The position numbers and the translations under genes are program-made. From Nitrospirillum viridazoti CBAmc (GTDB lineage: Bacteria > Pseudomonadota > Alphaproteobacteria > Azospirillales > Azospirillaceae), in the NCBI RefSeq assembly GCF_000730165.1, contig NZ_CP022113.1, positions 248,001 to 312,000 of the forward strand: DNA of 64,000 nucleotides, given 5' to 3'. Below are positions 21,619-33,701 of this stretch, piece after piece (position 1 is the stretch's first letter; every line of letters begins with the position of its first letter). Under the pieces are notes generated by a model that saw nothing but the letters and a program-made list of their open reading frames with translations, was not told the DNA's origin and searched no databases.

Positions 21619-21626
21619 CAGGGGAC

Positions 21627-21893
21627 TGAGCGACAAAGTGATCCAGTTCACCTTCCCGCCACGATATGCCGATGGCCCGACGGCCCGGTACGTGACGCAC
21701 ATGTTCGACAGGCGATGCCAGGAGAATGGCATCGAACGCCGCCTTACCAAGATCAGGCATCCCTGGACCAACGGCCAGGTCGAGCGCATGAACCGAACCA
21801 TCAAGGAAGCCACGGTCAAACGCTACAACTACGACAGCCATGAACAGTTCGAGCAGCATCTGAACGCCTTGGTCGGCGCCTACAACTTTGCAA
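21627..21893 (+). mobile_element. IS481-family fragment
   Basis: Nearly identical to part of the complete IS481 element at 33317-33583, covering the middle to late part of the integrase core. Both IS ends are missing. The left ~15 bases are diverged and the homology stops sharply after position 21893, where IS5-type sequence begins. Confidence 0.85.
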
Positions 21894-22948
21894 TGCCCTT
21901 CGACCGGTCGTCGATGTCCCGCTGGCGCCAGCGTCTGGGCGAGGAGCGGCTGGCGGCGCTGATCCAGGAGAGCCTGCGGGTGGCCCAGGCCACCGGCGCG
22001 CTCAGCACCAAGGACCTGGCGCGCGTGGCGGTGGACACCACCGTCCAGCCCAAGGCCATCGCCCACCCCACCGACGCCCGCCTGACCCACAAGGCCATCG
22101 AGAAGCTGGTCGCCTTCGCCAAGGACAATGGCATCACGCTGCGCCAGAGCTATCTGCGCGTGGCCAAGAAGGCCGCCATCATGGTCGGCCGCTACACCCA
22201 CGCCCACCAGCACAAGCAGGCCAATCGCCAACTGAAGTTCCTGCGCACCCGCCTGGGCCGCCTCATCCGCGACATCAACCGCAAGATCGCCGCCAAGGGG
22301 GGCGTCAAGGCTCCGGCCCTCCTAGCCCGCTACGCCCCTTTATGCGACTTGGCCATCAAGATCAGCATGCAGACCCAGCGCCAGCGCGGGCAAAAGGTCT
22401 ATTCCCTCCATGCCCCCGAGGTCGAATGCATCGGCAAAGGCAAGGCCCGCGCCCCTTACGAGTTCGGTTGCAAGGTAAGCGTCGCCGTCCCCATCACCAA
22501 GCCCAAGGGAGGGCTCTTTGTCCTCCACGCCCAGGCCATCCACGGCAACCCCTTCGACGGACACACCCTCGCCAAGGCCGTCGCCGACATCAAGGCCAAC
22601 ACCGGGCGCGATCCAGACCGGGTCCACGTCGACAAGGGCTATCGCGGGCACAACCATCCCAACAAGTTCAAGGTCTGGATCACTGGCCAGGTCCGCAGAA
22701 CCACCGCCGCCATCAAGCGGGAGATGAAACGCAGGGCCGCCATCGAGCCCATCATCGGCCATCTCAAGGCCGAGCACCGCATGGGACGAAACTACCTCAA
22801 GGGACGCAGCGGCGACCGCATCAACGCCGTCCTCGCCGCCGCCGGCTTCAACTTCCACCTCCTCATTAGGTGGTTCAAAGACCTTTGGCGTGCCCTCTTC
22901 CAGCTCCTCCAAACCCAAAGCAAAATGGCGCTGATCAGCTCCAATTGA
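21638..22948 (+). pseudogene. In-frame chimera of an IS481 transposase fragment and an IS5-family transposase fragment
   Basis: The open frame encodes 436 residues from two unrelated transposases. The first ~85 residues (FPPRYADGPTARYV, GQVERMNRTIKEA) are the IS481 integrase core, including the final catalytic Glu. From about position 21894 the sequence becomes an IS5-family transposase lacking its N-terminus: FDRSSMSRWRQRLGEE, VAVDTTVQPKAIAHPTDARL (first catalytic Asp), VDKGYRGHN, and AAIEPIIGHLKAEHRMGRNYL. Neither part is complete, so the product cannot be a working transposase. The IS5 part also contains the KVYSLHAPEVECIGKGKA block, typical of the ISSod/IS5-group enzymes. The join shows that recombination or insertion removed the start of the IS5 gene and the end of the IS481 gene. 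Confidence 0.85.
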
Positions 22949-22976
22949 GCCAATCAGCGCCATTCTTCACAGATGA
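21894..22976 (+). mobile_element. IS5-family element, left-truncated
   Basis: IS5-type transposase sequence continues from the fusion point to the stop at 22948. The right end probably lies near 22976, where a different coding remnant begins. The left end and the N-terminal third of the transposase are missing. Confidence 0.6.
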
Positions 22977-23270
22977 CTAATTAAAGTCCAACTTGACGTT
23001 GATGCTGACAAGGCGCTTTGGATGCGGGGAACCCAAACAGCGCAGAAGGCGGTCGAGGAAATTTACGACCACGCCCGCAATGCGACGATGCATGGACGTA
23101 AAAATCACAAGAAAGGAAAGCCGGATAGTAAACCATTCCATGACTGGGAGTCTGGGCGCGAACGTGCTGAAGCTTTGGCTCGGTACTGCTTAATGGCTTG
23201 TATCGACTGGACTGCGCAGCACCCCGGCAGTGACGACCCGAGATCGTGGACGGTGCCGTCAATAGGTTGA
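22977..23270 (+). pseudogene. C-terminal remnant of an unknown protein (HEPN/Apea-like appearance)
   Basis: A stop-free frame begins right at the end of the IS5 fragment and ends at a TGA at 23268-23270. The ~97 residues have a convincing protein composition: QKAVEEIYDHARNATMHG, ERAEALARYCLMACIDW, and a polar tail DPRSW. The RNATMHG core followed by an alpha-helix resembles the end of Apea-like HEPN domains (R-x4-6-H type), which are RNases or RNA-binding helical bundles. That resemblance is tentative. The 5' part was removed by the IS5/IS481 rearrangement. A long minus-strand ORF over the same bases is taken to be its shadow. Confidence 0.45.
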
Positions 23271-23435
23271 AAGCTAATTGTTGCGTTTCGTTGTTGTTAT
23301 TTCGTGAATTATTAATGGCGTCTACTTCATCATCGGAAATGTCTCTGACTTTTGTTGACAAAAATTCGAAATTTTGGTGAAGATTCCTGAAGAGAAATTC
23401 GCCCATGTGGGCGTACCATTGCTTCGACATACTTA
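23271..23435 (-). pseudogene. 3' part of the AT-rich gene interrupted by the nested IS stack
   Basis: On the minus strand an AT-rich frame begins with MSKQWYAHMGEFLFRN, then NFEFLSTKVRDISDDEVDAI and a run of Asn. It abuts the left end of IS630 copy 1. If the sequence between 23436 and 31474 is removed, leaving one TA, the upstream gene at 31475-32513 continues into exactly this frame (...GENIS-IS-MSKQW...). The frame, the base composition and the flanking TA all agree. The true stop is uncertain, because the frame runs on antisense to the plus-strand remnant at 22977-23270. Confidence 0.6.
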
Positions 23436-23566
23436 TACCAACGAGCGCTGATGGCGACTCTCGCTAAGGGGATTGAACGAACCCGCTGTCGCGGGAATGG
23501 CGCCGCTGTTGGCGTATGAGGCCTCCGGTCTGAGGATTGCGGTTGTCGAAGCCCAATCCACAGACA

Positions 23567-23574
23567 GGAGGTTC
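23567..23574. repeat. Left copy of the 8-bp IS66 target duplication
   Basis: GGAGGTTC directly precedes the IS66 end at 23575; the identical octamer follows the right end at 26752-26759. Eight bases is the normal IS66 duplication. Confidence 0.9.
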
Positions 23575-23651
23575 GTAAGCGTCAGCGCAGCCCCGCCTTC
23601 CCATGGCGTTATTGATGGGCATGCTTGCCGCTCGGCTTGAGTGGTGGACGC

Positions 23652-24086
23652 ATGGATGACGTGACGGTGATCGGCAAGGAGGCGCTTCGAAGTGCTCATA
23701 CGAGCGCTTCGGAGTTGCACGGCGAAGTTTTGAGCGGGCCGGAGCGTCGGCGGCGCTGGAGTACCGAAGAGAAGCTGCGGGTTCTGGCGCAGAGCGTGGC
23801 GCCGGGGTCGTCGCCGAGCCTGACGTGCCGCATGCACGGTATCAGCACCGGTCAGCTATCGACGTGGCGCAAGCAGTTCCGGTCGGGTGAGCTGACGGGG
23901 TTCGTGCCGGTCTCGGTTGTTGCCGATGCGGCGTTGCCCGCACCGGCTGTCGTACCTGAAGTGGCGGAGCAGACGCCCGTTGCCGTCGGCGTGGTCGAGG
24001 TCGAGCTGCCGACCGGCGTGCGCCTGCGGATCACCGGCGATGTCGGTGAGGCGGCCTTGCGCCGGGTTTTGGCGGCATTGTCGTGA
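23652..24086 (+). CDS. tnpA: IS66-family accessory protein TnpA
   Basis: A 144-aa protein starting at the ATG at 23652. Its N-terminal half is an IS3/IS911-type HTH used by IS66 TnpA (RRRRWSTEEKLRVLAQS, then CRMHGISTGQLSTWRKQF). The C-terminal part is Val/Pro-rich with VEVELPTGVRLRITGDV, typical for these proteins. It overlaps tnpB by four bases. It is required with TnpB for IS66 transposition; its exact biochemical role is unclear. Confidence 0.92.
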   Translation: MDDVTVIGKEALRSAHTSASELHGEVLSGPERRRRWSTEEKLRVLAQSVAPGSSPSLTCRMHGISTGQLSTWRKQFRSGELTGFVPVSVVADAALPAPAVVPEVAEQTPVAVGVVEVELPTGVRLRITGDVGEAALRRVLAALS

Positions 24087-24430
24087 TCGGCCTTCCGGGC
24101 AATGTCCGCCTCTACCTGGCGTGCGGCGCGACCGACATGCGCCGTGGGTTCGACAGCCTGGCCGCTCAGGTGCAGACGATGCTGAGGCTTGATCCCCACG
24201 ACGGCGCGCTTTACGCCTTCCGGGGGCGGCGGGGTGACCTGATCAAGATTTTATGGTGGGACGGCCAGGGCCTCTGCCTGTTCTCCAAGCGGCTGGAGCG
24301 TGGCCGGTTCGTCTGGCCACAGGCCCGGGAGGGCTCGGTCGCGCTTACCGCCGCCCAGGTTTCCATGCTGCTGGAAGGGATCGATTGGCGGACGCCGGTG
24401 CGAACCTGGCAGCCGGACGCGGCCTGCTGA
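24083..24430 (+). CDS. tnpB: IS66-family protein TnpB (Orf2)
   Basis: A 115-aa protein with a GTG start overlapping the tnpA stop. It contains the invariant IS66 Orf2 pattern: YLACGATDMRRGFDSLAA, GALYAFRGRRGDLIKILWWDGQGLCLFSKRLERGRF, and LLEGIDWR. The family is essential for IS66 transposition, with unknown mechanism. Confidence 0.95.
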   Translation: MIGLPGNVRLYLACGATDMRRGFDSLAAQVQTMLRLDPHDGALYAFRGRRGDLIKILWWDGQGLCLFSKRLERGRFVWPQAREGSVALTAAQVSMLLEGIDWRTPVRTWQPDAAC

Positions 24431-24526
24431 GCGCGCTCGGTCCCGTGCGGCCCCCGGCGCGTCATAGTGACTCGGATGCTGTCCACCACGCTGCCGACGG
24501 CGGCGTTTTCGGGTAGAATCCGCCCC

Positions 24527-26122
24527 ATGACCGCCGCCGCCGCAGAGATCGCCGAGCTCCGTGCCCGGCTCGCCGAACGCGAGGCCGAACTGGCCACGGC
24601 GCGGGCGGAACTGACTGGCGCGCGCCTCCTGATCGAGCAGTACAAGGCCCAACTGGCCAAGCTCCGCCGGATGCAGTTCGGCCGCTCATCGGAGAAGCTC
24701 GACCGGCAGATCGCGCAACTGGAACTGATGCTGGAAGACCTGGAGGAAGGCGAAGCCGCCCGGACGGCGCCGTCGCTGGATGCCGGGAACGCGGCCCCGG
24801 AACGGCGCCAGCGGGACCAGCGCCATCCGGTGCGCCATCCCTTGCCGGAGCATCTGCCGCGGGAGGAGGTCGTCCATTCCCCCGGTGACGTCTGCCCCGG
24901 CTGCGGCGGCACGCATTTCTCCAAGCTGGGCGAGGACGTGACCGAGGTGCTGGAGAAGATCCCGGCCCGCCTCAAGGTGATCCGCCACATCCGGCCGAAG
25001 CTCTCCTGCCGGGCGTGCGAGGTCATCCTCCAGGCGCCTGCCCCAGACCTGCCGGTGGAGAAGGGCCGCCCCGGGCCCGGCCTGCTGGCCAATGTCGTGG
25101 TGTCGAAGTACCTGGACGGGCTGCCGCTCTACCGGCAGTCGGCGATCCTGGCGCGCGAGGGCATCGCGATCGAGCGCGCGACCTTGGCCGATTGGGTCGG
25201 CCATGCCGCCTGGTGGGTGGCCCCCCTGGCCGGTCTGATCGGTGCCCATGTAATGGCGGCGCCAGTCATCCACACCGACGACACGCCGATCAAGGTGCTG
25301 GCCCCCGGCAACGGCCAGACCCGGCTCGGTCGGCTTTGGACCTACCTGGTCGATGAGCGGCCCTGGTGCGGGGAGCGTGCGCCAGCGGCGTTCTATCGTT
25401 TCAGCCCGGATCGCAAGGGCGAACGGCCCCGTGAGCATCTCTCCGGGTTCAGCGGGGTGATCCAGGCGGACGCCTATACGGGTTATGAGGCACTGACCCG
25501 GCCATCGAGCCTGGTCCAGCCCGGCATCATCCCATCGGGCATCGTTCATGCTGCCTGCTGGGCGCATGCGCGGCGGCATCTCTACGACCAGTACGAGAAG
25601 ACCAGGTCACCCATCGCCGAGGAGGCCTTGCGCCGGATCGGGCGGCTCTACGAGGTCGAGGCCGCGATCACCGGCCTGTCGGCTGAACAGCGCCGGGACG
25701 CCCGGCGGCAACTCGCCGTTCCCATCCTCGACGACCTCAAGCCATGGCTGGAGGCGCAGCAACGGCGCCTGTCGGCCAAGAACACGCTGGGCAAGGCGAT
25801 CGGGTATGCGCTGAACCGCTGGGAGGCGCTCACCCTCTATGTCGCCGATGGCCGTATCGCCATCGACAACAACCCCGCCGAACGCTCCCTGCGCGGCATC
25901 GCAATCACCAGGAAGAACTTCCTGTTCCTGGGCTCCGAGGCGGGCGGCGACCGGGCGGCACTCCTCTACTCCGTCCTGGAGACGGCGAAGCTGAACGGGC
26001 TCGACCCCGAGGCCTATCTGGCGGATGTCCTGGACCGCATGGCCAAGGGGCATCCGATCAACCGGCTGGCCGAACTTCTGCCCTGGAACTGGATGCGCCG
26101 GGCTGACAAACTCGCGGCATGA
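24527..26122 (+). CDS. tnpC: IS66-family transposase TnpC
   Basis: A 531-aa transposase; the ATG at 24527 is preferred because it starts the conserved N-terminal coiled coil (EIAELRARLAEREAEL). Next come LRRMQFGRSSEKLD, a zinc-finger region with CPGCGG and SCRACE, and the DDE domain with IHTDDTPIKVLAPG, YTGYEAL, CWAHARRHL, and DNNPAERSLRGIAITRKNFLFLGS near the end. All are typical for intact IS66 transposases. Its stop overlaps the start of the passenger ORF (ATGA). Confidence 0.95.
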   Translation: MTAAAAEIAELRARLAEREAELATARAELTGARLLIEQYKAQLAKLRRMQFGRSSEKLDRQIAQLELMLEDLEEGEAARTAPSLDAGNAAPERRQRDQRHPVRHPLPEHLPREEVVHSPGDVCPGCGGTHFSKLGEDVTEVLEKIPARLKVIRHIRPKLSCRACEVILQAPAPDLPVEKGRPGPGLLANVVVSKYLDGLPLYRQSAILAREGIAIERATLADWVGHAAWWVAPLAGLIGAHVMAAPVIHTDDTPIKVLAPGNGQTRLGRLWTYLVDERPWCGERAPAAFYRFSPDRKGERPREHLSGFSGVIQADAYTGYEALTRPSSLVQPGIIPSGIVHAACWAHARRHLYDQYEKTRSPIAEEALRRIGRLYEVEAAITGLSAEQRRDARRQLAVPILDDLKPWLEAQQRRLSAKNTLGKAIGYALNRWEALTLYVADGRIAIDNNPAERSLRGIAITRKNFLFLGSEAGGDRAALLYSVLETAKLNGLDPEAYLADVLDRMAKGHPINRLAELLPWNWMRRADKLAA

Positions 26123-26724
26123 CCGCCGACACCCTTGCCATCCTGCGCATCGAACTGCTCCATACCGAACCCCTGGTCTGGCGCCGCGTTGCCGTGCGCG
26201 GCACCACCAGCCTCGCGGCGCTCCACAAGATCATCCAGGCCGCCATGGGCTGGCTCGACTACCATCTGTGGGAGTTCGAGGTCGAGGGGGCCACCTACGG
26301 CCTTCCCGATCCCGATGGCATGGACTGGGGGCGCACTATCAAGCGCGCCAGCACGATCAAGCTACAAAAGTTGCTCGATGCCGGTGTCGAGACGTTCGGC
26401 TACGTCTACGACATGGGCGACAACTGGGAACACCAGATCATCATCGAGCGCGTCGAGGCCGCTCAGCCGGACCAGCCCTATCCCCAGTTCCTTGGTGGCG
26501 AGCGGCGCTGCCCGCCCGAGGATTGCGGCGGAGTTCCCGGCTACTACGACTTCCTCGATGACATCGCCGGGCCCGACAAGGGCAGAGGCAGCAAAAAGAA
26601 GAAGGAAGCCCTCGACTGGTACGGCGGCCCCTACGACCCCGACGATATCGATGAAGAGCAGATCCGCATTACTCTTAAGCGGATCGCCAGCGCTTCAAGA
26701 ATGAAGAAGGCCGTCAACCCTTGA
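26119..26724 (+). CDS. Plasmid pRiA4b ORF-3-like protein, IS66 passenger
   Basis: A 201-aa protein of the pRiA4b ORF-3 family: LRIELLHTEPLVWRRVAV at the start, LAALHKIIQAAMGW, HLWEFEVEGATYG, and the YDMGDNWEHQIIIERV block, followed by GERRCPPEDCGGVPGYYDFL. The family is common in mobile elements and next to IS66 genes; its function is unknown. It is translationally coupled to tnpC and ends 27 bases before the right inverted repeat, so it belongs to the element rather than to the host. Confidence 0.9.
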   Translation: MTADTLAILRIELLHTEPLVWRRVAVRGTTSLAALHKIIQAAMGWLDYHLWEFEVEGATYGLPDPDGMDWGRTIKRASTIKLQKLLDAGVETFGYVYDMGDNWEHQIIIERVEAAQPDQPYPQFLGGERRCPPEDCGGVPGYYDFLDDIAGPDKGRGSKKKKEALDWYGGPYDPDDIDEEQIRITLKRIASASRMKKAVNP

Positions 26725-26751
26725 ACTGCTCGCCGATCCGCTGACGCTTAC

Positions 26752-26759
26752 GGAGGTTC
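26752..26759. repeat. Right copy of the 8-bp IS66 target duplication
   Basis: GGAGGTTC, identical to 23567-23574. This copy places a GGAGG ribosome-binding core four to eight bases ahead of the recombinase ATG at 26764, so the insertion leaves the translation signal intact. Confidence 0.9.
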
Positions 26760-26763
26760 CGCG

Positions 26764-27624
26764 ATGGCCGAGTTGAGCCCTCTACGTCGCCGCATGATCG
26801 AGGACATGACGGTCCGTAATCTGTCGCCGGCGACGCAACGATCCTACGTGCATGCCGTGGCGAAGTTCAGCCGGTATTTTGGGCGGTCGCCGGACCGCCT
26901 TGGTCTTGAGGACGTCCGTGCTTTCCAGGTCCATCTGGTCGCCACGGGGATATCGTGGCCGGCGTTGAACCAGACGGTGTGCGCCCTGCGGTTCTTCTAT
27001 GGCGTGACGCTGGGGTATGGCGATCTGCCCGAACGCATCCCGTACGCGCGCGAGCCACGCAAGCTGCCGGTGGTGCTGAGCGCGGACGAAGTGGTGCGTT
27101 TCCTGGAAGCGGTGCCGAGCCTGAAGAGCCGGACGGCGTTGACGACGGCGTACGCGGCGGGCTTGCGGGCGTCGGAGGCCGTCAGCCTTAAGGTCGGCGA
27201 TATTGACGGTGGGCGGATGGTCATCCGGGTCGAGCACGGCAAGGGTGGCAAGGACCGCCACGTCATGCTGTCGGCGCAGTTGCTGGGCATCCTGCGCACC
27301 TATTGGCGCCTGGCCCGGCCCGGTCATTGGCTGTTTCCCGGCCGGGACGGGAGCCGGTCGATGGACGTGCAGGTGCTCCATTCGGCCTGCCGTTCGGCTT
27401 GTGCCGCCGCCGGGCTGGCCAAGCGCGTGACGGTCCACACGCTCCGGCACAGCTTCGCCACCCATTTGCTGGAGGACGGCACGGACATCCGCATCATCCA
27501 GGTCCTGCTGGGCCACAGCAACCTGTCGAGCACGGCGCGGTACACCCAGGTCTCCAACAGCGTCATCCGGCGCACCGAGAGCCCGCTCGACCGCCTGAAG
27601 CTGGAGGTGGTGCCTCCCGCCTGA
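26764..27624 (+). CDS. Tyrosine recombinase/integrase of the IS91-type element
   Basis: A 286-aa phage-integrase-family recombinase. The SAM-like core-binding domain (residues ~5-95) starts with LSPLRRRMIEDMTVRNLSPATQRSYVHAVAKF. The catalytic domain has the R in YAAGLRASEAVSL, the HTLRHSFATHLLEDGTD box (H-x-x-R), LLGHSNLSSTARYTQV with its H, and the nucleophilic Tyr. All catalytic residues are present. Such recombinases regularly accompany IS91-type transposases in Proteobacteria, perhaps to resolve intermediates. The gene is 12 bases upstream of the transposase. IS66 has separated it from its original leader. Confidence 0.92.
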   Translation: MAELSPLRRRMIEDMTVRNLSPATQRSYVHAVAKFSRYFGRSPDRLGLEDVRAFQVHLVATGISWPALNQTVCALRFFYGVTLGYGDLPERIPYAREPRKLPVVLSADEVVRFLEAVPSLKSRTALTTAYAAGLRASEAVSLKVGDIDGGRMVIRVEHGKGGKDRHVMLSAQLLGILRTYWRLARPGHWLFPGRDGSRSMDVQVLHSACRSACAAAGLAKRVTVHTLRHSFATHLLEDGTDIRIIQVLLGHSNLSSTARYTQVSNSVIRRTESPLDRLKLEVVPPA

Positions 27625-27636
27625 GCCGGCATCGCC

Positions 27637-28824
27637 ATGCCGGCCGGGCTGGAGGTGGCGGACGTCTTCCGCCGCCACGGCGACGCCTATCGCCAGGCGC
27701 ACGATGGCCACCTCGGCTGCGTCGAGCGCCGGGTGATGGGTGCGATCGAGGCATGCCGCACGGCGGCACTGGGCGGCCACGCCGAAGCTTGCCCGGAGTG
27801 CGGCCTGGTGCGGTGCGCCTACAACTCCTGCCGCAACCGGCATTGTCCCAAGTGCCAGGGCGCCGCGCGGGCGGAATGGCTTGCCGCACGACAGGCCGAT
27901 CTGCTGCCGGTACCCTACTTCCACGTCGTGTTCACGCTGCCGGCACCCGTGGCGGAGATCGCGTTCCAGAACAAGGCGGTGGTCTATGCCATCCTGTTCA
28001 AGGCCGCCGCCGAGACCCTGCGCATCATCGCCGCTGATCCCAAGCACCTGGGCGCCGAGATCGGGCTTGTCGCCGTGCTCCACACCTGGGGCCAGACCCT
28101 TCACCACCATCCGCATGTCCATTGTGTCGTGCCCGGCGGTGGACCGTCGATCGATGGCACGCGCTGGGTCGGATGCCGGCCCGGCTTCTTCCTGCCGGTC
28201 CGCGTGCTCTCCCGCCTGTTCCGCCGCTTGTTCCTCGACGCGCTGGCCGCCGCGTTCGAGGCCGGCACCCTCGGCTTCTTCGGCGACCTCGCCCCCCTGG
28301 CGGAGCCCGCCGCCTTCCACCACCGCTTGCGCGACCTGCGGCGGGTCGAATGGGTCGTCTACGCCAAGCCGCCCTTCGGCGGCCCCGCCCAGGTGCTGGC
28401 CTATCTGGGCCGCTACACCCATCGGGTCGCCATCTCCAATACCCGCTTGGTCGCCATGACCGGCAGAGACGTCACATTCCGATGGAAGGATTATCGCCAT
28501 CATGACAAGGCCAAGGTCATGACCCTGGCATCCTTCGAGTTCATCCGGCGCTTCCTGCTCCACACCGTGCCGGATGGCTTCCACCGCATCCGCCATTATG
28601 GCTTCCTCGCCAACAGTCACCGGGCCGGAAAGCTGGCACTTTGCCGCAAGCTCCTCGATGTCCCACCGCCGGCGCCAACGGTGGCCGAAGAACCCACCGA
28701 CCGCTCCCCATTGGCCAGCCCCCCGCTGGATCGCTGCCCGTGCTGCGGTGGCGCGATGATCCTCCTGGCCGTCTTGCCGCCGCTTCGGCCCCATCGCCCG
28801 CCCCTCCGGTACGACACCTCATGA
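27637..28824 (+). CDS. IS91-family transposase (HUH/Y2-type)
   Basis: A 395-aa IS91 transposase. The N-terminal zinc-binding region (CPECGLVRCAYNSCRNRHCPKCQG) precedes the HUH endonuclease core, with the histidine pair in HHHPHVHCVVPGG. Further conserved parts are YFHVVFTLP, VLAYLGRYTHRVAISNTRL (catalytic Tyr region), and FRWKDYRHHDKAKVMTL. It is full length, with a Pro-rich tail ending in a CPCCGG motif. It mobilises the element by rolling-circle transposition. Noncoding bases 28825-29172 to its right form the element end. Confidence 0.93.
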   Translation: MPAGLEVADVFRRHGDAYRQAHDGHLGCVERRVMGAIEACRTAALGGHAEACPECGLVRCAYNSCRNRHCPKCQGAARAEWLAARQADLLPVPYFHVVFTLPAPVAEIAFQNKAVVYAILFKAAAETLRIIAADPKHLGAEIGLVAVLHTWGQTLHHHPHVHCVVPGGGPSIDGTRWVGCRPGFFLPVRVLSRLFRRLFLDALAAAFEAGTLGFFGDLAPLAEPAAFHHRLRDLRRVEWVVYAKPPFGGPAQVLAYLGRYTHRVAISNTRLVAMTGRDVTFRWKDYRHHDKAKVMTLASFEFIRRFLLHTVPDGFHRIRHYGFLANSHRAGKLALCRKLLDVPPPAPTVAEEPTDRSPLASPPLDRCPCCGGAMILLAVLPPLRPHRPPLRYDTS

Positions 28825-29172
28825 ACCGACAACATTCCAACATCGCCCGGCCGTCCACCCCGGCAGCCCCGCGCGCCGGCCGGAGGTGTTTTACCCGCCG
28901 CACCACCGCGGACAGCTCCCGGCTTCAAAATAGCGGCAAAGCTGACGCCAGTCCTCGCCCGTGGGCCGCCAACGAGCGCCCTACGGTCAATCCAGCCCCA
29001 TCAGAACCCTTCCAACGGGCCCGGATCGGCATCACGAACCAGGCCCCAAAGCCACTTTCCCCATAGCCCGCGCCCGTCATCCCGCGGCTTCGCTCAATCC
29101 GGCTTCAATGAGGTCGCGGTCGCCCCCGGTAGCACCCTCGGCGCAACGCGACCTCACAGAAGCCTCCAGATT
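28825..29172. other. Noncoding right end of the IS91-type element
   Basis: No gene seen. It contains the inverted repeat GAGGTCGCG (29110-29118) / CGCGACCTC (29147-29155), which could be the terminal hairpin recognised by the HUH transposase. The element ends at or just before 29172, where IS630 sequence resumes. Confidence 0.5.
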
Positions 29173-29224
29173 CCCATGGGGCTGATTTTCTGATTCACCA
29201 GAGCAAGCACAGAGGAGGCTTGCG

Positions 29225-30285
29225 ATGGGTTCGGCAGTCGAGATTCGTACGGATTATTCAGCAGCGGCTCTGCGCCAATTGGCCCGCCGGTGCGGCGATG
29301 GCGATCAGGTTCGGCGGTTGTTGGCCCTGGCGCAGATCCTCGACGGTCGGAGCCGGGGTGAAGCGGCCAGGACGGCTGGTGTGACGCTGCAAATCGTGCG
29401 GGACTGGGGCCTTCGTTTCAATGCGGGTGGCCCGGATGGCTTGGCAACGCGCAAGGCGCCCGGCAAGGCATCGCTGCTGAACGATACGCACCGCGCGCGC
29501 TTGGCCGCAGCCGTCGAGGCCGGGCCCATTCCGGCCGTACACGGCGTCGTTCGCTGGCGGCTTGTCGATCTGGCCCAGTTGTTGTGGGACGAGTTCGGCG
29601 TGTCGGTGACGCGCTTCACCCTTGGCCGCGAATTGCGCGCGTTGGGCTACCGCAAGCTCTCGGCCCGGCCGCGCCATCGCGGTCAGAAGCCCGAAGACAT
29701 CACGGATTTTAAAAAACCTTCGCAACCCGCCTGGCGGGCATCCGGCGCCACTTCCCGCCGGGAACGCCAATAGAAGTGTGGTGGCAGGACGAAGCCCGGA
29801 TCGGCCAGCAGACCGAACTCACCCGGCGCTGGGCCAGGCTTGGCACCAGGCCGTCAGCCCCGAAGGATCAGCGCCGGGCCTCGGCTTGGATCTTCGGTGC
29901 GATCTGCCCCGCCGAGGGCAAAGGTGCCGGCATCGTCATGCCCCGATGCAACACCGCTGCGATGAACCGCCATCTCCAGGAAATCGCCGTCCACGTCGCG
30001 CCCGGCGCGCAGGCCGTCCTCATCCTTGATCAGGCGGGGTGGCATCACTCCGCCGAACTCATCGTCCCGGACAACATCACGCTCATGCCTTTGCCGCCTC
30101 GTTGCCCGGAACTTAACCCCGTCGAAAACCTCTGGCAGTTCATCCGCGACAACTGGCTCTCAAATCGCATCTTCCAGAACTATGACGACATCGTCGACCA
30201 CTGCTGCCACGCATGGAACAAACTCGTCGAACAGCCATACCGCATCATGTCCATCGGACTTCGGCAGTGGGCCCATGGGTCATAA
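29225..30285 (+). CDS. IS630-family transposase copy 1, expressed through a -1 frameshift
   Basis: Two frames form one transposase. The first (29225-29773) holds the N-terminal HTH part: QVRRLLALAQILDGRSRGEAARTAGVTLQIVRDW and FGVSVTRFTLGRELRALGY. At A6 (29711-29716) a -1 slip continues into the DDE frame that ends at 30285: VWWQDEARIG, VLILDQAGWHH, and LNPVENLWQFIRDNWL carry the D, D and E. Without slippage the first frame runs on to a stop about 57 bases later. Poly-A slippery sites are usual in IS630-type elements, and the same arrangement is conserved in copy 2, so this is probably programmed rather than decay. Confidence 0.88.
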
Positions 30286-30304
30286 TCAACGCTCTTTGGT
30301 ATTA

Positions 30305-31472
30305 TACCAGCGAGCGCTGATGGCGACTCTCACTGGGGGATTCCCTTCGGGCTGATTTTCTGATTCACCAGAGCAAGCAAAGAGGAGGCTTGCGATGGGT
30401 TCGGCAGTCGAGGTTCGTTCGGATTATTCAGCAGCGGCTCTGCGCCAATTGGCCCGCCGGTGCGGCGATGCCGATCAGGTTCGGCGGTTGTTGGCCCTGG
30501 CGCAGATCCTCGACGGGCGGAGCCGGGGTGAAGCGGCCAGGACGGCTGGTGTGACGCTGCAGATCGTGCGGGACTGGGTCCTTCGTTTCAACGCGGGTGG
30601 CCCGGATGGCTTGGCAACGCGCAAGGCGCCCGGCAAGGCATCGCTACTGAACGATACGCACCGCGCGCGCCTGGCCGCAGCCGTCGAGGCCGGGCCAATT
30701 CCGGCCGTACACGGGGTCGTGCGCTGGCGGCTTGTCGACCTGGCCCAGTTGTTGTGGGACGAGTTCGGCGTGTCGGTGACGCGCTTCACCCTTGGCCGCG
30801 AATTGCGCGCGCTGGGCTATCGTAAGCTCTCGGCCCGGCCGCGCCATCGTGGTCAGAAGCCCGAAGACATCACTGATTTTAAAAAACCTTCGCAACCCGT
30901 CTGGCGGGCATCCGGCGCCACTTCCCGCCGGGAACGCCGATAGAAGTGTGGTGGCAGGACGAGGCCCGGATCGGTCAGCAGACCCAACTCACCCGGCGCT
31001 GGGCCCAGCGTGGCACCAGGCCGTCAGCCCCGAAGGATCAGCGCCGGGCCTCGGCTTGGATCTTCGGTGCGATCTGCCCCGCCGAGGGCAAAGGGGCAGG
31101 TATCGTCATGCCCCGCTGCAACAGCGCCGCGATGAACCGCCATCTCCAGGAAATCGCCGTCCACGTCGCGCCGGGCGCGCAGGCTGTTCTCATCCTTGAT
31201 CAGGCCGGGTGGCATCACTCGGACGAACTCATCGTGCCGGACAACATCACGCTCATGCCCTTGCCTCCCCGCTGCCCAGAACTTAACCCCGTCGAAAACC
31301 TCTGGCAGTTCATGCGCGACAACTGGCTCTCAAATCGCGTCTTCCAGAACTATGGCGACATCGTCGACCACTGCTGCCACGCCTGGAACAAACTCGTCGA
31401 ACAGCCTTACCGCATCATGTCCATTGGACTTCGACAGTGGGCCAATGGCTCGTAATTAATGCTCGTTGGTAT
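30305..31472 (+). mobile_element. IS630-family element copy 2, intact
   Basis: The left end TACCAGCGAGCGCTG (30305) and the right end ...GCTCGTTGGTAT (31472) form imperfect inverted repeats. TA flanks both sides (30303-30304 and 31473-31474). At 1168 bases it is a close copy of copy 1 and abuts it directly: the two share a single TA. Confidence 0.9.
30395..31455 (+). CDS. IS630-family transposase copy 2, expressed through a -1 frameshift
   Basis: The same two-frame arrangement as copy 1. The HTH-containing frame (30395-30943) and the DDE frame ending at 31455 are joined by a -1 slip on A6 at 30881-30886. Catalytic blocks EVWWQDEARIG, VLILDQAGWHH and LNPVENLWQFMRDNW are intact. It differs from copy 1 by only a handful of residues, for example VLRF for GLRF and HHSDEL for HHSAEL, so the two copies are recent. 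It lies entirely inside the undisturbed element and is the more likely active copy. Confidence 0.88.
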
Positions 31473-32513
31473 TATAGAGATATTTTCCCCAATCTGAGAT
31501 AATCTAATTGGTTTTTCAGATATTCCAAATTTATGAACCGAGCTAAAAACATTTTCTATCCGATTGTCTTTCCAATGCATGATTGTGCTTGAAATATAAT
31601 CGTAATTTAAAGATGGTCTATATACGGATATTCTTTCGCCTTTTATTCGAGTGCTAAGAATTGGTGGAATAGCGCAAATTTTTTCCTGAAATTTTGGTGT
31701 GGGTGTGCTTTCGTATTCTCTAAGTGTTCGAGTTACGAGCATATCATCTTGATATTCGGTCTTTATGAAGTGATTGCGAATTTTAAGGTGCTTTATTTTC
31801 TGTCCATTATCTATTGAATCCCAGAACGTGTATAAAATATTACCAATCTTGGCGGCTTTTCCGGCATTAAACATTGCAATTTTAATGGCGCCACCCCATC
31901 GATCCAGAAAATTCTCTCCAGTCATAACTTCAATACCAGTTGCTTGTGCCGCTAACCAAAGCCCATTCATTGTCGCCATAGCCATATAATTATTATCAAA
32001 TATCTGCAACTCTTCTGCGGTTGTGGGCATTTCACATTCGGAAAGAATTTGGGCCATGTGGTGAAATCCACTGCCAGCGATCAGTACGTTTGATAGATAT
32101 TTATGCTCCAATCGGATGGCATCCCTATAAAAATAGGATGTATGTGTTTCTCCTCTGATGAAGCCAATGAGACTCAAGTTCCAAGAATCTTCTGGTGGAA
32201 TTTTTTCCATATATCCCATAATATTTAACTGTGTTATTTCACCTTTTTTGTGAAACTCTTTTAGCTCGCGCATCACTGCCCGAGCCTGAACGTAACTTCC
32301 GGCCCATGCAATTATCAATTTATCAGATAAGATATTTACTTTCTGCTTCATGCCTGTGACATGGGCATGAGCTTTTCTCTTATTCATATAAATATTTACG
32401 TTGTTGTAAGTTGGCGTATTAAATAATTCATCGGATGATCCATCGTTAGATAATAATACGTCTCCGATTAGGATAGGGGAATCGTGAAAAGTATATCCGA
32501 GAATAAGAGTCAT
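31473..32513 (-). pseudogene. 5' part of an AT-rich gene, Ntn-hydrolase-like, split by IS630
   Basis: The minus-strand frame encodes ~346 genuine residues and then runs into the IS630 end, where it gains a spurious tail. The N-terminus (TLILGYTFHDSPILIGDVLLS), then KVNILSDKLIIAWAGSYVQARAVMREL, resembles the beta-sheet opening of proteasome/Ntn-hydrolase proteins; that is a fold guess only. The rest (GFHHMAQILSE, MNGLWLAAQATGIE) is unrecognised. The missing 3' part appears to be at 23271-23435. The gene is clearly AT-richer than its neighbours, suggesting it was acquired. It starts 14 bases after the stop of another broken AT-rich gene, pointing to an operon. Confidence 0.7.
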
Positions 32514-32526
32514 TATTCAATTCCAA

Positions 32527-32676
32527 TTATCTGTTTACCAACCATATATTTTCTATGAGATTGTCGTAATCTGAATCGCATGTTCCGCATCTATGATCCT
32601 TGAGGATGCAATCCAATGAGCAAGGTTCGTACCGAAAATCACATCTAAAACTGCGATGCTGTACTATAGCTTCGTT
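32527..32676 (-). pseudogene. C-terminal fragment of a Cys-rich protein cut by IS481
   Basis: About 49 residues of minus-strand frame run from the IS481 left end to the stop at 32527: HRSFRCDFRYEPCSLDC, KDHRCGTC, and DYDNLIENIWLVNR. The five closely spaced cysteines suggest a metal site, such as the SPASM-type tails of radical-SAM enzymes; that is a weak guess. It ends 14 bases upstream of the AT-rich split gene and shares its AT-rich composition, so both belong to the same lost operon. Its 5' part is either missing or was the gene now ending at 33699; see findings. Confidence 0.45.
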
Positions 32677-33701
32677 TAGGTGTTCGGTCCCAGGGATTGA
32701 TGGTGCAATGACCTCACAGGAATGGAGGGATGCACTATGGGCCAGATACTTCACGGCTGCGCCCGCACGACAGAGGCAGTGCGTCGAGCGATACAACATA
32801 GTCAAGAGAGCTTGAGGGCCCTGGCCAGCCGGTACGGGGTCAATCAGAAGACGGTCGCCAAGTGGCGGGGGCGGCATAATGTGGTGGACCAGCCAACTGG
32901 CCCAAGGGAAGCCAGATCCACTGTCCTGACTCTGGAAGAGGAAGCGGTAATCGTCGCTTTCCGCCGCCATACATTATTGCCACTGGATGACTGCCTCTAT
33001 GCCCTGCAACCGACCATTCCCCATCTGACCCGATCTTCCCTACACCGATGTCTTCAGCGACACGGCATCAGCAGGCTGCCGGAGGTGGAAGGCGACAAGC
33101 CTGCCAAGCGGAAGTTCAAAGCCTACCCGATCGGCTATTTCCACATCGATATCGCCGAGATCAGGACAGCCGAAGGCAAGCTGTACCTTTACGTTGCCAT
33201 TGATCGGACAAGCAAATTTGCTTTCGTGCAGATAGCCAGGAAGACGGGGCGCTCATCCGCTTCCGCCTTCCTGGTCGCCTTGATCGATGCTGTCCCCTAC
33301 ACGATCCACACGGTACTGACCGACAACGGGATCCAGTTCACCTTCCCGCCACGATATGCCGATGGCCCGACAGCCCGGTACGTGACGCACATGTTCGACA
33401 GGCGGTGCCAGGAGAATGGCATCGAACACCGGCTTACCAAGATCAAACATCCCTGGACCAACGGCCAGGTCGAGCGCATGAACCGAACCATCAAGGAAGC
33501 TACGGTCAAACGCTACCACTACGACAGCCATGAACAGTTCGAGCAGCATCTGAATGCCTTCGTCGGCGCCTACAACTTTGCAAGGCGCCTCAAGACGCTT
33601 CGAGGCCTGACGCCCTGGGAATTCATCTGCAAATCATGGACAGCTGAACCCCAGCGGTTCAGGCTAAACCCGCACCATCAATCCCTGGGACCGAACACCT
33701 A
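32677..33701 (+). mobile_element. IS481-family element, complete
   Basis: Left end TAGGTGTTCGGTCCCAGGG (32677) and right end CCCTGGGACCGAACACCTA (ending 33701) are perfect inverted repeats that continue inward for about 30 bases. The element carries one intact transposase. Bases just outside are GTT on both sides. The related IS481 of Bordetella prefers CTAG, and a CTAG/TTAG pair also borders the ends here. Confidence 0.92.

What the first reader, a model, noticed from the sequence alone, without database searches (positions are those of the whole stretch)
23271..32513. One AT-rich gene split by 8 kb of insertion sequences, reading frame recoverable
Removing 23436-31474, which leaves a single TA, lets the minus-strand frame of the 31475-32513 gene (...GENIS) continue in frame into MSKQWYAHMGEFLFRN at 23430 and on to about 23271. 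The two halves have the same AT-rich composition, unlike the surroundings. The N-terminus looks like an Ntn-hydrolase/proteasome-like fold, so the intact protein in relatives may be an uncharacterised family carried on an acquired island.
Basis: partly seen in the sequence, partly recalled or inferred. Interest (0 to 1): 0.7.

Follow-up and report, generated by a model that had tools for sequence, protein, structure and literature searches.

The report
IS-broken gene for a proteasome-like enzyme
An AT-rich, probably acquired gene for an uncharacterised relative of the proteasome's protein-cutting subunits has been split by stacked jumping elements in this bacterium, while a few intact copies occur in scattered other bacteria and plasmids.

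Summary
The frame claim holds: leaving out 23436-31474 (8039 bp, IS630-type ends, one TA kept) keeps the minus-strand frame, and both pieces have the same GC (37.2%, 38.0%; window 63.9%). The 5' piece (346 codons) belongs to a small scattered family: eight distinct relatives, roughly 19-29% identical, in Proteobacteria and one cyanobacterial plasmid; no Pfam, NCBIfam, PHROG or PADLOC match in the members scanned. All nine members have Thr after Met1, Asp 16 residues later, and Lys-x13-Gly, the proteasome/HslV active-site layout. The family profile matches HslV of related genomes better than 200 of 200 column shuffles. All nine genes are AT-rich against their surroundings. Weak points: the 3' piece shows no similarity to relatives' tails, its frame runs past where they stop, and both structure models are low-confidence. 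Closest known are the proteasome homologs of Fuchs et al. 2021; which of their subfamilies, if any, could not be tested. Boldest lead: both plasmids with a relative also carry a multiubiquitin cluster within about 7 kb, but none of the six other relatives' genomes has a multiubiquitin match.

The parts
31475..32513 (-). 5' piece of the proteasome-like Ntn-hydrolase gene, 346 codons, starting M-T (catalytic Thr expected after Met removal)
31407..32513 (-). present-day ORF: the 346 codons plus 22 codons read out of the IS630 end, then a stop
23271..23435 (-). putative 3' piece (54-55 codons), in frame with the 5' piece; same GC; no similarity to relatives' tails detected
23436..31474 (.). 8039-bp stack of insertion sequences between the two pieces, TA on both sides
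23436..23470 (+). left end of IS630 copy 1 (separated from its body)
29169..30302 (+). body of IS630 copy 1 (94.7% identical to copy 2 over 1136 bp)
30303..31474 (+). IS630 copy 2, lying directly behind copy 1
23471..29168 (+). block with IS66-type and IS91-type genes (named by recognition, not searched) inside IS630 copy 1
22949..23270 (+). 3' end of a gene convergent with the Ntn gene; HEPN-like R-x4-H motif (recalled); 77% and 72% identical to the C-terminal part of ORFs in two genomes of the same family
32514..32676 (-). AT-rich remnant upstream of the Ntn gene: C-terminal tail of a cut ORF, no Pfam match
32677..33701 (+). IS481-type element (Pfam rve domains; family name by recognition) with perfect 30-bp inverted ends, cutting the AT-rich stretch upstream of the Ntn gene

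Best explanation
A mobile, AT-rich gene for a proteasome-like N-terminal-threonine hydrolase was acquired and then broken when an IS630 element landed at a TA near its 3' end; IS66/IS91-type elements and a second IS630 piled in. Shown: the insert and frame geometry, the family, and the conserved Thr-Asp-Lys-Gly layout. Inferred: methionine aminopeptidase removes Met1, and the exposed Thr1 attacks a peptide or amide bond with help from the Asp and Lys; no unfoldase partner is evident in the flanks read. Eight of the nine members carry 21-26 extra residues between Asp and Lys, the site where connectase has its specificity insertion, so a substrate-specific protease or ligase seems more likely than a general one. 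A role in plasmid or island defence or stress is a guess from context (about 0.3). In the window the protein has lost the last 17-35 residues that relatives have (a strand and a helix in a low-confidence model) and is probably dead.
For: Frame, TA and GC. Family: plasmid relative at 28.3%, E 5e-17; others. Motif: 9 of 9 members have T2, D18 and K with G 14 later. In the same of 396 ORFs of 150 aa or more (distinct by their first 60 residues, overlapping ORFs included) fit T2/D18/K-x13-G: 7 family members and 1 Anbu-type protein (name recalled). Profile against 12 HslV sequences of related genomes: E 0.0042 with the window row, 0.0018 with the eight relatives alone; 0 of 200 column shuffles reach the score (maximum 19.2 against 26.7); reversed alignment E 0.54. 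PDB hmmsearch: 16 of 20 listed sequences are proteasome subunits (best E 0.026) and one is HslV. Foldseek: the 50 chains listed of 928 matches are all proteasome chains. AT-rich in 9 of 9.
Against: Both models are poor (mean pLDDT 36.9 and 36.8), so the Foldseek list is only suggestive (best E 3e-3, none at or below 0.001). HHalign probabilities are low (2.1-14.9%), the match covers only positions 1-64 of 175 of HslV, and I trimmed both inputs to begin at the Thr, so the Thr1-Thr1 start is not independent evidence. The PDB E-values are not significant and 15 of the 16 proteasome hits are variants of one alpha-subunit type or its near kin. The 3' piece has no detected homology. Starts of two relatives (G109, Mariprofundus) were set at an internal M-T to fit the family. 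Activity and function are untested.
Confidence: 0.7

Rival explanations
1. The 5' piece is a broken Ntn gene, but 23271-23433 is not its original 3' end: a deletion beside the IS630 or exchange between its copies brought in other AT-rich DNA, and the frame match is luck.
For: No similarity to relatives' tails; the frame has no stop within the 17-35 residues where relatives end and runs into the antisense of the next gene.
Against: TA-precise ends, kept frame, 54 open codons, same GC; about 0.8% by chance. The relatives' own tails align poorly with each other.
Confidence: 0.3
2. The present ORF 31407-32513 (368 aa, with 22 codons from the IS630 end) is still a working enzyme.
For: All four conserved active-site positions and the region matched to HslV (profile positions 1-86) are intact.
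Against: The last 17-35 residues that all 8 relatives have are missing; upstream DNA is cut by an IS481-type element at 32677; the convergent neighbour is also a remnant.
Confidence: 0.12
3. The protein is not a proteasome-like Ntn hydrolase; the motif layout is coincidence.
For: No Pfam match above cut-off; low-confidence models; no PDB sequence hit better than E 0.026.
Against: Motif in 9 of 9 and specific; HslV profile match, 0 of 200 shuffles; proteasome chains lead two listings, one by sequence profile and one by model.
Confidence: 0.06

Closest known systems
Proteasome homologs of Fuchs, Alva and Lupas 2021 (PMC8665760), above all those with an S3/S4 insertion (PMI-5, PMI-6, connectase) or an extra C-terminal domain (DAH)
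   Same: Thr1, Asp17, Lys33 and Gly47 positions; patchy prokaryotic distribution; no clear gene context; insertion between Asp17 and Lys33 in 8 of 9 members; long C-terminal part beyond the region matched to HslV
   Different: Which subfamily, if any, cannot be told: their sequences are not held here. Members here are 343-393 aa where intact and AT-rich against their surroundings in 9 of 9.
HslV
   Same: Thr1, Asp17 and Lys in the N-terminal part align
   Different: Family starts M-T; 343-393 aa against about 175; match limited to HslV positions 1-64; the genome has its own HslV-type gene elsewhere
Anbu
   Same: M-T start, Asp at 18 and K-x13-G in one of two Anbu-type proteins fetched (L038; name recalled)
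   Different: 243-251 aa as ORFs; no insertion between Asp and Lys in L038

Membership tests
Proteasome-like Ntn hydrolases (features as given in PMC8665760) | Thr1 or Ser1 nucleophile | tested here: met
   T2 after Met1 in 9 of 9, start chosen at an internal M-T in two
Proteasome-like Ntn hydrolases (features as given in PMC8665760) | Asp17 | tested here: met
   D18 in Met numbering in 9 of 9
Proteasome-like Ntn hydrolases (features as given in PMC8665760) | Lys33 and Gly47 | tested here: met
   K followed by G 14 residues later in 9 of 9; Lys displaced by an insertion in 8 of 9, at 33 in the Tenderia member
Proteasome-like Ntn hydrolases (features as given in PMC8665760) | S1-S11 beta core and flanking helices | tested here: inconclusive
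   mean pLDDT 36.9 and 36.8; strands and helices of the first 130 residues come in a plausible order
One of the 22 subfamilies of Fuchs et al. 2021 | Sequence membership | not testable with these tools
   Their alignments and representative proteins are not held; only main-text sections were read
HslV | Match over the whole HslV subunit | tested here: not met
   only positions 1-64 of 175 align
Connectase-like | Insertion between Asp17 and Lys33 (S3/S4) | tested here: met
   Asp-to-Lys distance 37-41 in 8 of 9 and 15 in Tenderia; 16 in a same-genus HslV (L027, counted). Resemblance in position only
Connectase-like | Protein ligase activity | not testable with these tools
   needs biochemistry
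Known anti-phage systems | Match to a PADLOC model | tested here: not met
   none for the window ORF, the 3' piece and three relatives: Oscillatoria, L012, L011; the other five relatives were not scanned

The most novel reading that the evidence does not exclude
The family is a dedicated peptidase or ligase partner of bacterial multiubiquitin conjugation systems: a plasmid-borne ubiquitin-plus-proteasome-like pair distinct from Pup and the 20S proteasome. Both plasmid records carrying a relative also carry a multiubiquitin cluster within about 7 kb (with E2, E1 and DUF6527 in Oscillatoria; with ThiF and a weak JAB match in Tenderia), while 151 or 169 of 72,556 plasmid records, by query, have such a gene; the window's genome has a weakly matching Ub-like ORF next to one that looks like a JAB-ThiF fusion on another contig. 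Against it: 0 of the 6 other relatives' genomes has a Multi_ubiq match.
Probability: 0.08. Interest if true: 0.85.

Novelty: new member of a known kind. Interest (0 to 1): 0.45.

Why it matters
Many proteasome-like enzymes beyond HslV, Anbu, BPH, connectase and the 20S proteasome are uncharacterised (PMC8665760). This group is rare in the genomes sampled, lies in AT-rich patches of unrelated genomes and in one case inside a type I restriction operon, which points to a mobile accessory function. Intact members from bacteria not known as pathogens could be expressed directly, so what such a proteasome-like enzyme does is testable. The window itself is a clear case of decay of an acquired gene by stacked insertion sequences.

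Tried and rejected
Viral origin: four scans of viral contigs with window, A3, L012 and Oscillatoria queries and one phage tblastn with the Oscillatoria protein found no relative. Close relatives in the order: none in 81 other genomes. Families of two hosts: only the known member in 17 and in 149 genomes. Genome-collection scan: two relatives, one of them the Mariprofundus contig already found; only two short patterns could be used, so other members were probably missed. Homology of the 3' piece: fragment alignment scattered it and Smith-Waterman sums against the last 45 residues of the eight relatives did not beat shuffles (157 against mean 163.3 for the whole piece, 1398 of 2000 as high; 142 against 137.9 for its first 30 residues, 714 of 2000 as high; the Mariprofundus tail there carried a stray stop sign and one residue too many). 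Structure: two predictions, both low-confidence. Ubiquitin link in trans: 0 of 6 genomes of the non-plasmid relatives have a Multi_ubiq match (one of them is 78% complete, for another no completeness is given) against 12 of 385 in the class, so no genome-wide co-occurrence is seen. The blastn of IS630 and IS481 against the whole window gave no output because the word size was given twice; the IS481 repeat rests and the IS630 copies and the IS630-to-IS630 comparison. Papers: PMC8665760 was seen as outline with abstract, Results and Discussion sections and passages; other papers were seen only in search listings. I found no other paper that looked to be on such a family in those searches, which do not cover subscription journals.
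Full report
What is in the sequence. The minus strand holds an AT-rich ORF from 32513 down to 31407. Its first 346 codons end at 31475, and the last 22 are read from the end of an IS630 element. Between 23436 and 31474 lie 8039 bp with TA on both sides and inverted ends. Leaving this out and keeping one TA, the codon phase continues into the ATG frame at 23430. Only that frame of 23271-23433 is stop-free. GC is 37.2% for the 5' piece, 38.0% for the 3' piece, 53.1% for 22960-23270 and 63.9% for the window. A chance open frame of 54 codons at this GC has probability 0.025, or about 0.8% with the phase included. The frame does not stop at 23271; it goes on to 22981 on the antisense strand of the next gene.

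The stack. IS630 copy 2 (30303-31474) and the body of copy 1 (29169-30302) are 94.7% identical over 1136 bp. The left end of copy 1 lies at 23436-23470, cut off from its body by 5.7 kb with IS66- and IS91-type genes, which I named by recognition. The own genome has 9 matches to IS630 copy 2 in all, full or partial, these included. Upstream, an IS481-type element with perfect 30-bp ends (32677-33701) cuts the AT-rich stretch. Downstream, 22949-23270 is the 3' end of another gene: it matches C-terminal parts of ORFs in 2 of the 81 other genomes of the order searched, at 77% and 72%. Both of those ORFs end at about the same residue as the window's, so the stop at 23268-23270 looks native and the two genes convergent.

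The family. A plasmid of Oscillatoria nigro-viridis holds a 393-aa relative (28.3% identity, E 5e-17). Search by protein and profile added members in a Mariprofundus MAG, a gammaproteobacterial MAG, four genomes of the window's class and a Candidatus Tenderia plasmid, where PLSDB's gene table, which is incomplete, lists no gene. With the window this makes nine distinct members. Frequencies were 3 of 398 genomes drawn from the phylum (protein query) and 5 of 385 from the class (profile), own genome included, and 1 of 82 in the order, the window's own. No library match passed a cut-off: Pfam, NCBIfam and PHROGs over the eight rows of A2, which lack L012, gave only weak hits at E 0.019 or worse; PADLOC gave none for four members and the 3' piece.

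Why a proteasome-like hydrolase. In 9 of 9 members Thr follows Met1, Asp stands 16 residues after the Thr, and a Lys is followed 14 residues later by Gly. PMC8665760 gives Thr1/Ser1, Asp17, Lys33 as the catalytic triad and Gly47 as the oxyanion hole. In the Tenderia member the Lys is at 33 in Met numbering, 15 after the Asp; in the other eight it is 37-41 after the Asp, that is 21-26 extra residues, which I take to be the S3/S4 site of that paper, where connectase, PMI-5 and PMI-6 have insertions. The pattern T2, D18 and K-x13-G fits 8 of 396 ORFs in all my loci: seven family members and one Anbu-type protein (the two members whose ORFs start upstream of the M-T do not count there, and HslV ORFs start upstream of their Thr too). 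A profile of the family against 12 HslV sequences of related genomes gives E 0.0042 (0.0018 without the window row); 0 of 200 column-shuffled profiles reach the score (maximum 19.2 against 26.7). Both inputs had been trimmed to begin at the Thr, so that the alignment starts there is not independent. Against a set with two Anbu-type proteins added the E-value is 0.023. HHalign's own probabilities are low, 2.1-14.9%. In the PDB by profile, 16 of 20 listed sequences are proteasome subunits, best E 0.026, most of them versions of one alpha-subunit type, and one further is HslV. AlphaFold with three rows gave mean pLDDT 36.9 and 36.8. Foldseek on the second model gave 928 matches at E up to 10; the 50 listed are all proteasome chains, best E 3e-3 and none at or below 0.001. 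This fits but carries little weight on its own because the model is poor.

Is the 3' piece the real end? All 8 relatives have 17-35 residues after the column where the 5' piece ends; in the low-confidence model of L012 this part is a strand and a helix. The 3' piece could supply that, but its sequence does not resemble the relatives' tails: 1398 of 2000 shuffles score as well, and it has no stop at the expected distance. I put the chance that it is the original end at about 0.65.

Contexts. Every gene is AT-rich against its surroundings, 9 of 9. Six relatives come from genome assemblies, replicon type untested. In the flanks I read (part of the output was cut and L015 was relisted) no partner gene stood out by eye; the Mariprofundus gene lies at a contig end, so one side is unseen, and in L012 the gene starts 15 bp behind a long ORF on the same strand. 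These neighbours were not searched against family models. The Oscillatoria gene lies between HsdS and HsdR of a type I restriction operon, overlapping HsdR. Both plasmids with a relative have a multiubiquitin gene cluster nearby: multiubiquitin, E2, ThiF and DUF6527 about 5-7 kb upstream in Oscillatoria, and multiubiquitin, a weak JAB match and ThiF about 3-5 kb away in Tenderia, with two other genes between. Multiubiquitin relatives are found in 151 or 169 of 72,556 plasmid records, depending on the query. Against a general link, 0 of 6 genomes of the other relatives have a Multi_ubiq match. The window's own genome has one weak match (E 1.5e-4, 25.0 bits against a cut-off of 24.5) on contig C3 beside an ORF that looks like a JAB-ThiF fusion. 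The class background is 12 of 385. Two plasmids are too few to claim more than a lead.

Verdict. The finding is real and mostly read correctly: a probably acquired gene for a proteasome-like Ntn hydrolase broken by stacked insertion sequences. The kind is known (Fuchs et al. 2021 described 22 such subfamilies and expected more); whether this is one of them could not be tested.

Noticed in passing
window 22949-23270 (+): 3' end of a gene with a HEPN-like R-x4-H motif (recalled); the related 492-aa ORF L023:1483-2961 matches no Pfam or PADLOC model at E 0.01. A possible uncharacterised defence gene.
   Followed up: partly
L003:6001-7182 (NC_019763.1 34579-35760): A proteasome-like Ntn hydrolase gene embedded between HsdS and HsdR of a type I restriction operon, overlapping HsdR; the HsdM there is split into two ORFs that match the first and the later part of one type I methyltransferase model.
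   Followed up: partly
L011:5914-6945 (CP013100.1, minus strand): Proteasome-like gene on the Tenderia plasmid with no gene listed there in PLSDB's incomplete table, about 3-5 kb from multiubiquitin, JAB-like and ThiF genes; it lacks the Asp-Lys insertion of the other members.
   Followed up: partly
L045:1327-3193 (own genome, contig C3): Small ubiquitin-like ORF overlapping a large ORF that looks like a JAB-ThiF fusion (by eye, not searched).
   Followed up: no
window 29225-30285 and 30395-31455 (+): Both IS630 copies have their transposase in two ORFs (182 and 169 aa); a T4A6 run lies some 60 bp before the end of the first ORF (29707-29716 in copy 1), which could be a frameshift site.
   Followed up: no
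window 21638-22948 (+): Chimeric ORF: the 3' part of an IS481-type transposase (21619-21901 is 94% identical to 33309-33591) joined in frame to a DDE_Tnp_1-type transposase, marking a junction between two elements.
   Followed up: no
window 32514-32688 (-): C-terminal tail of an AT-rich, cysteine-containing ORF cut by the IS481-type element just upstream of the Ntn gene; no Pfam match.
   Followed up: partly
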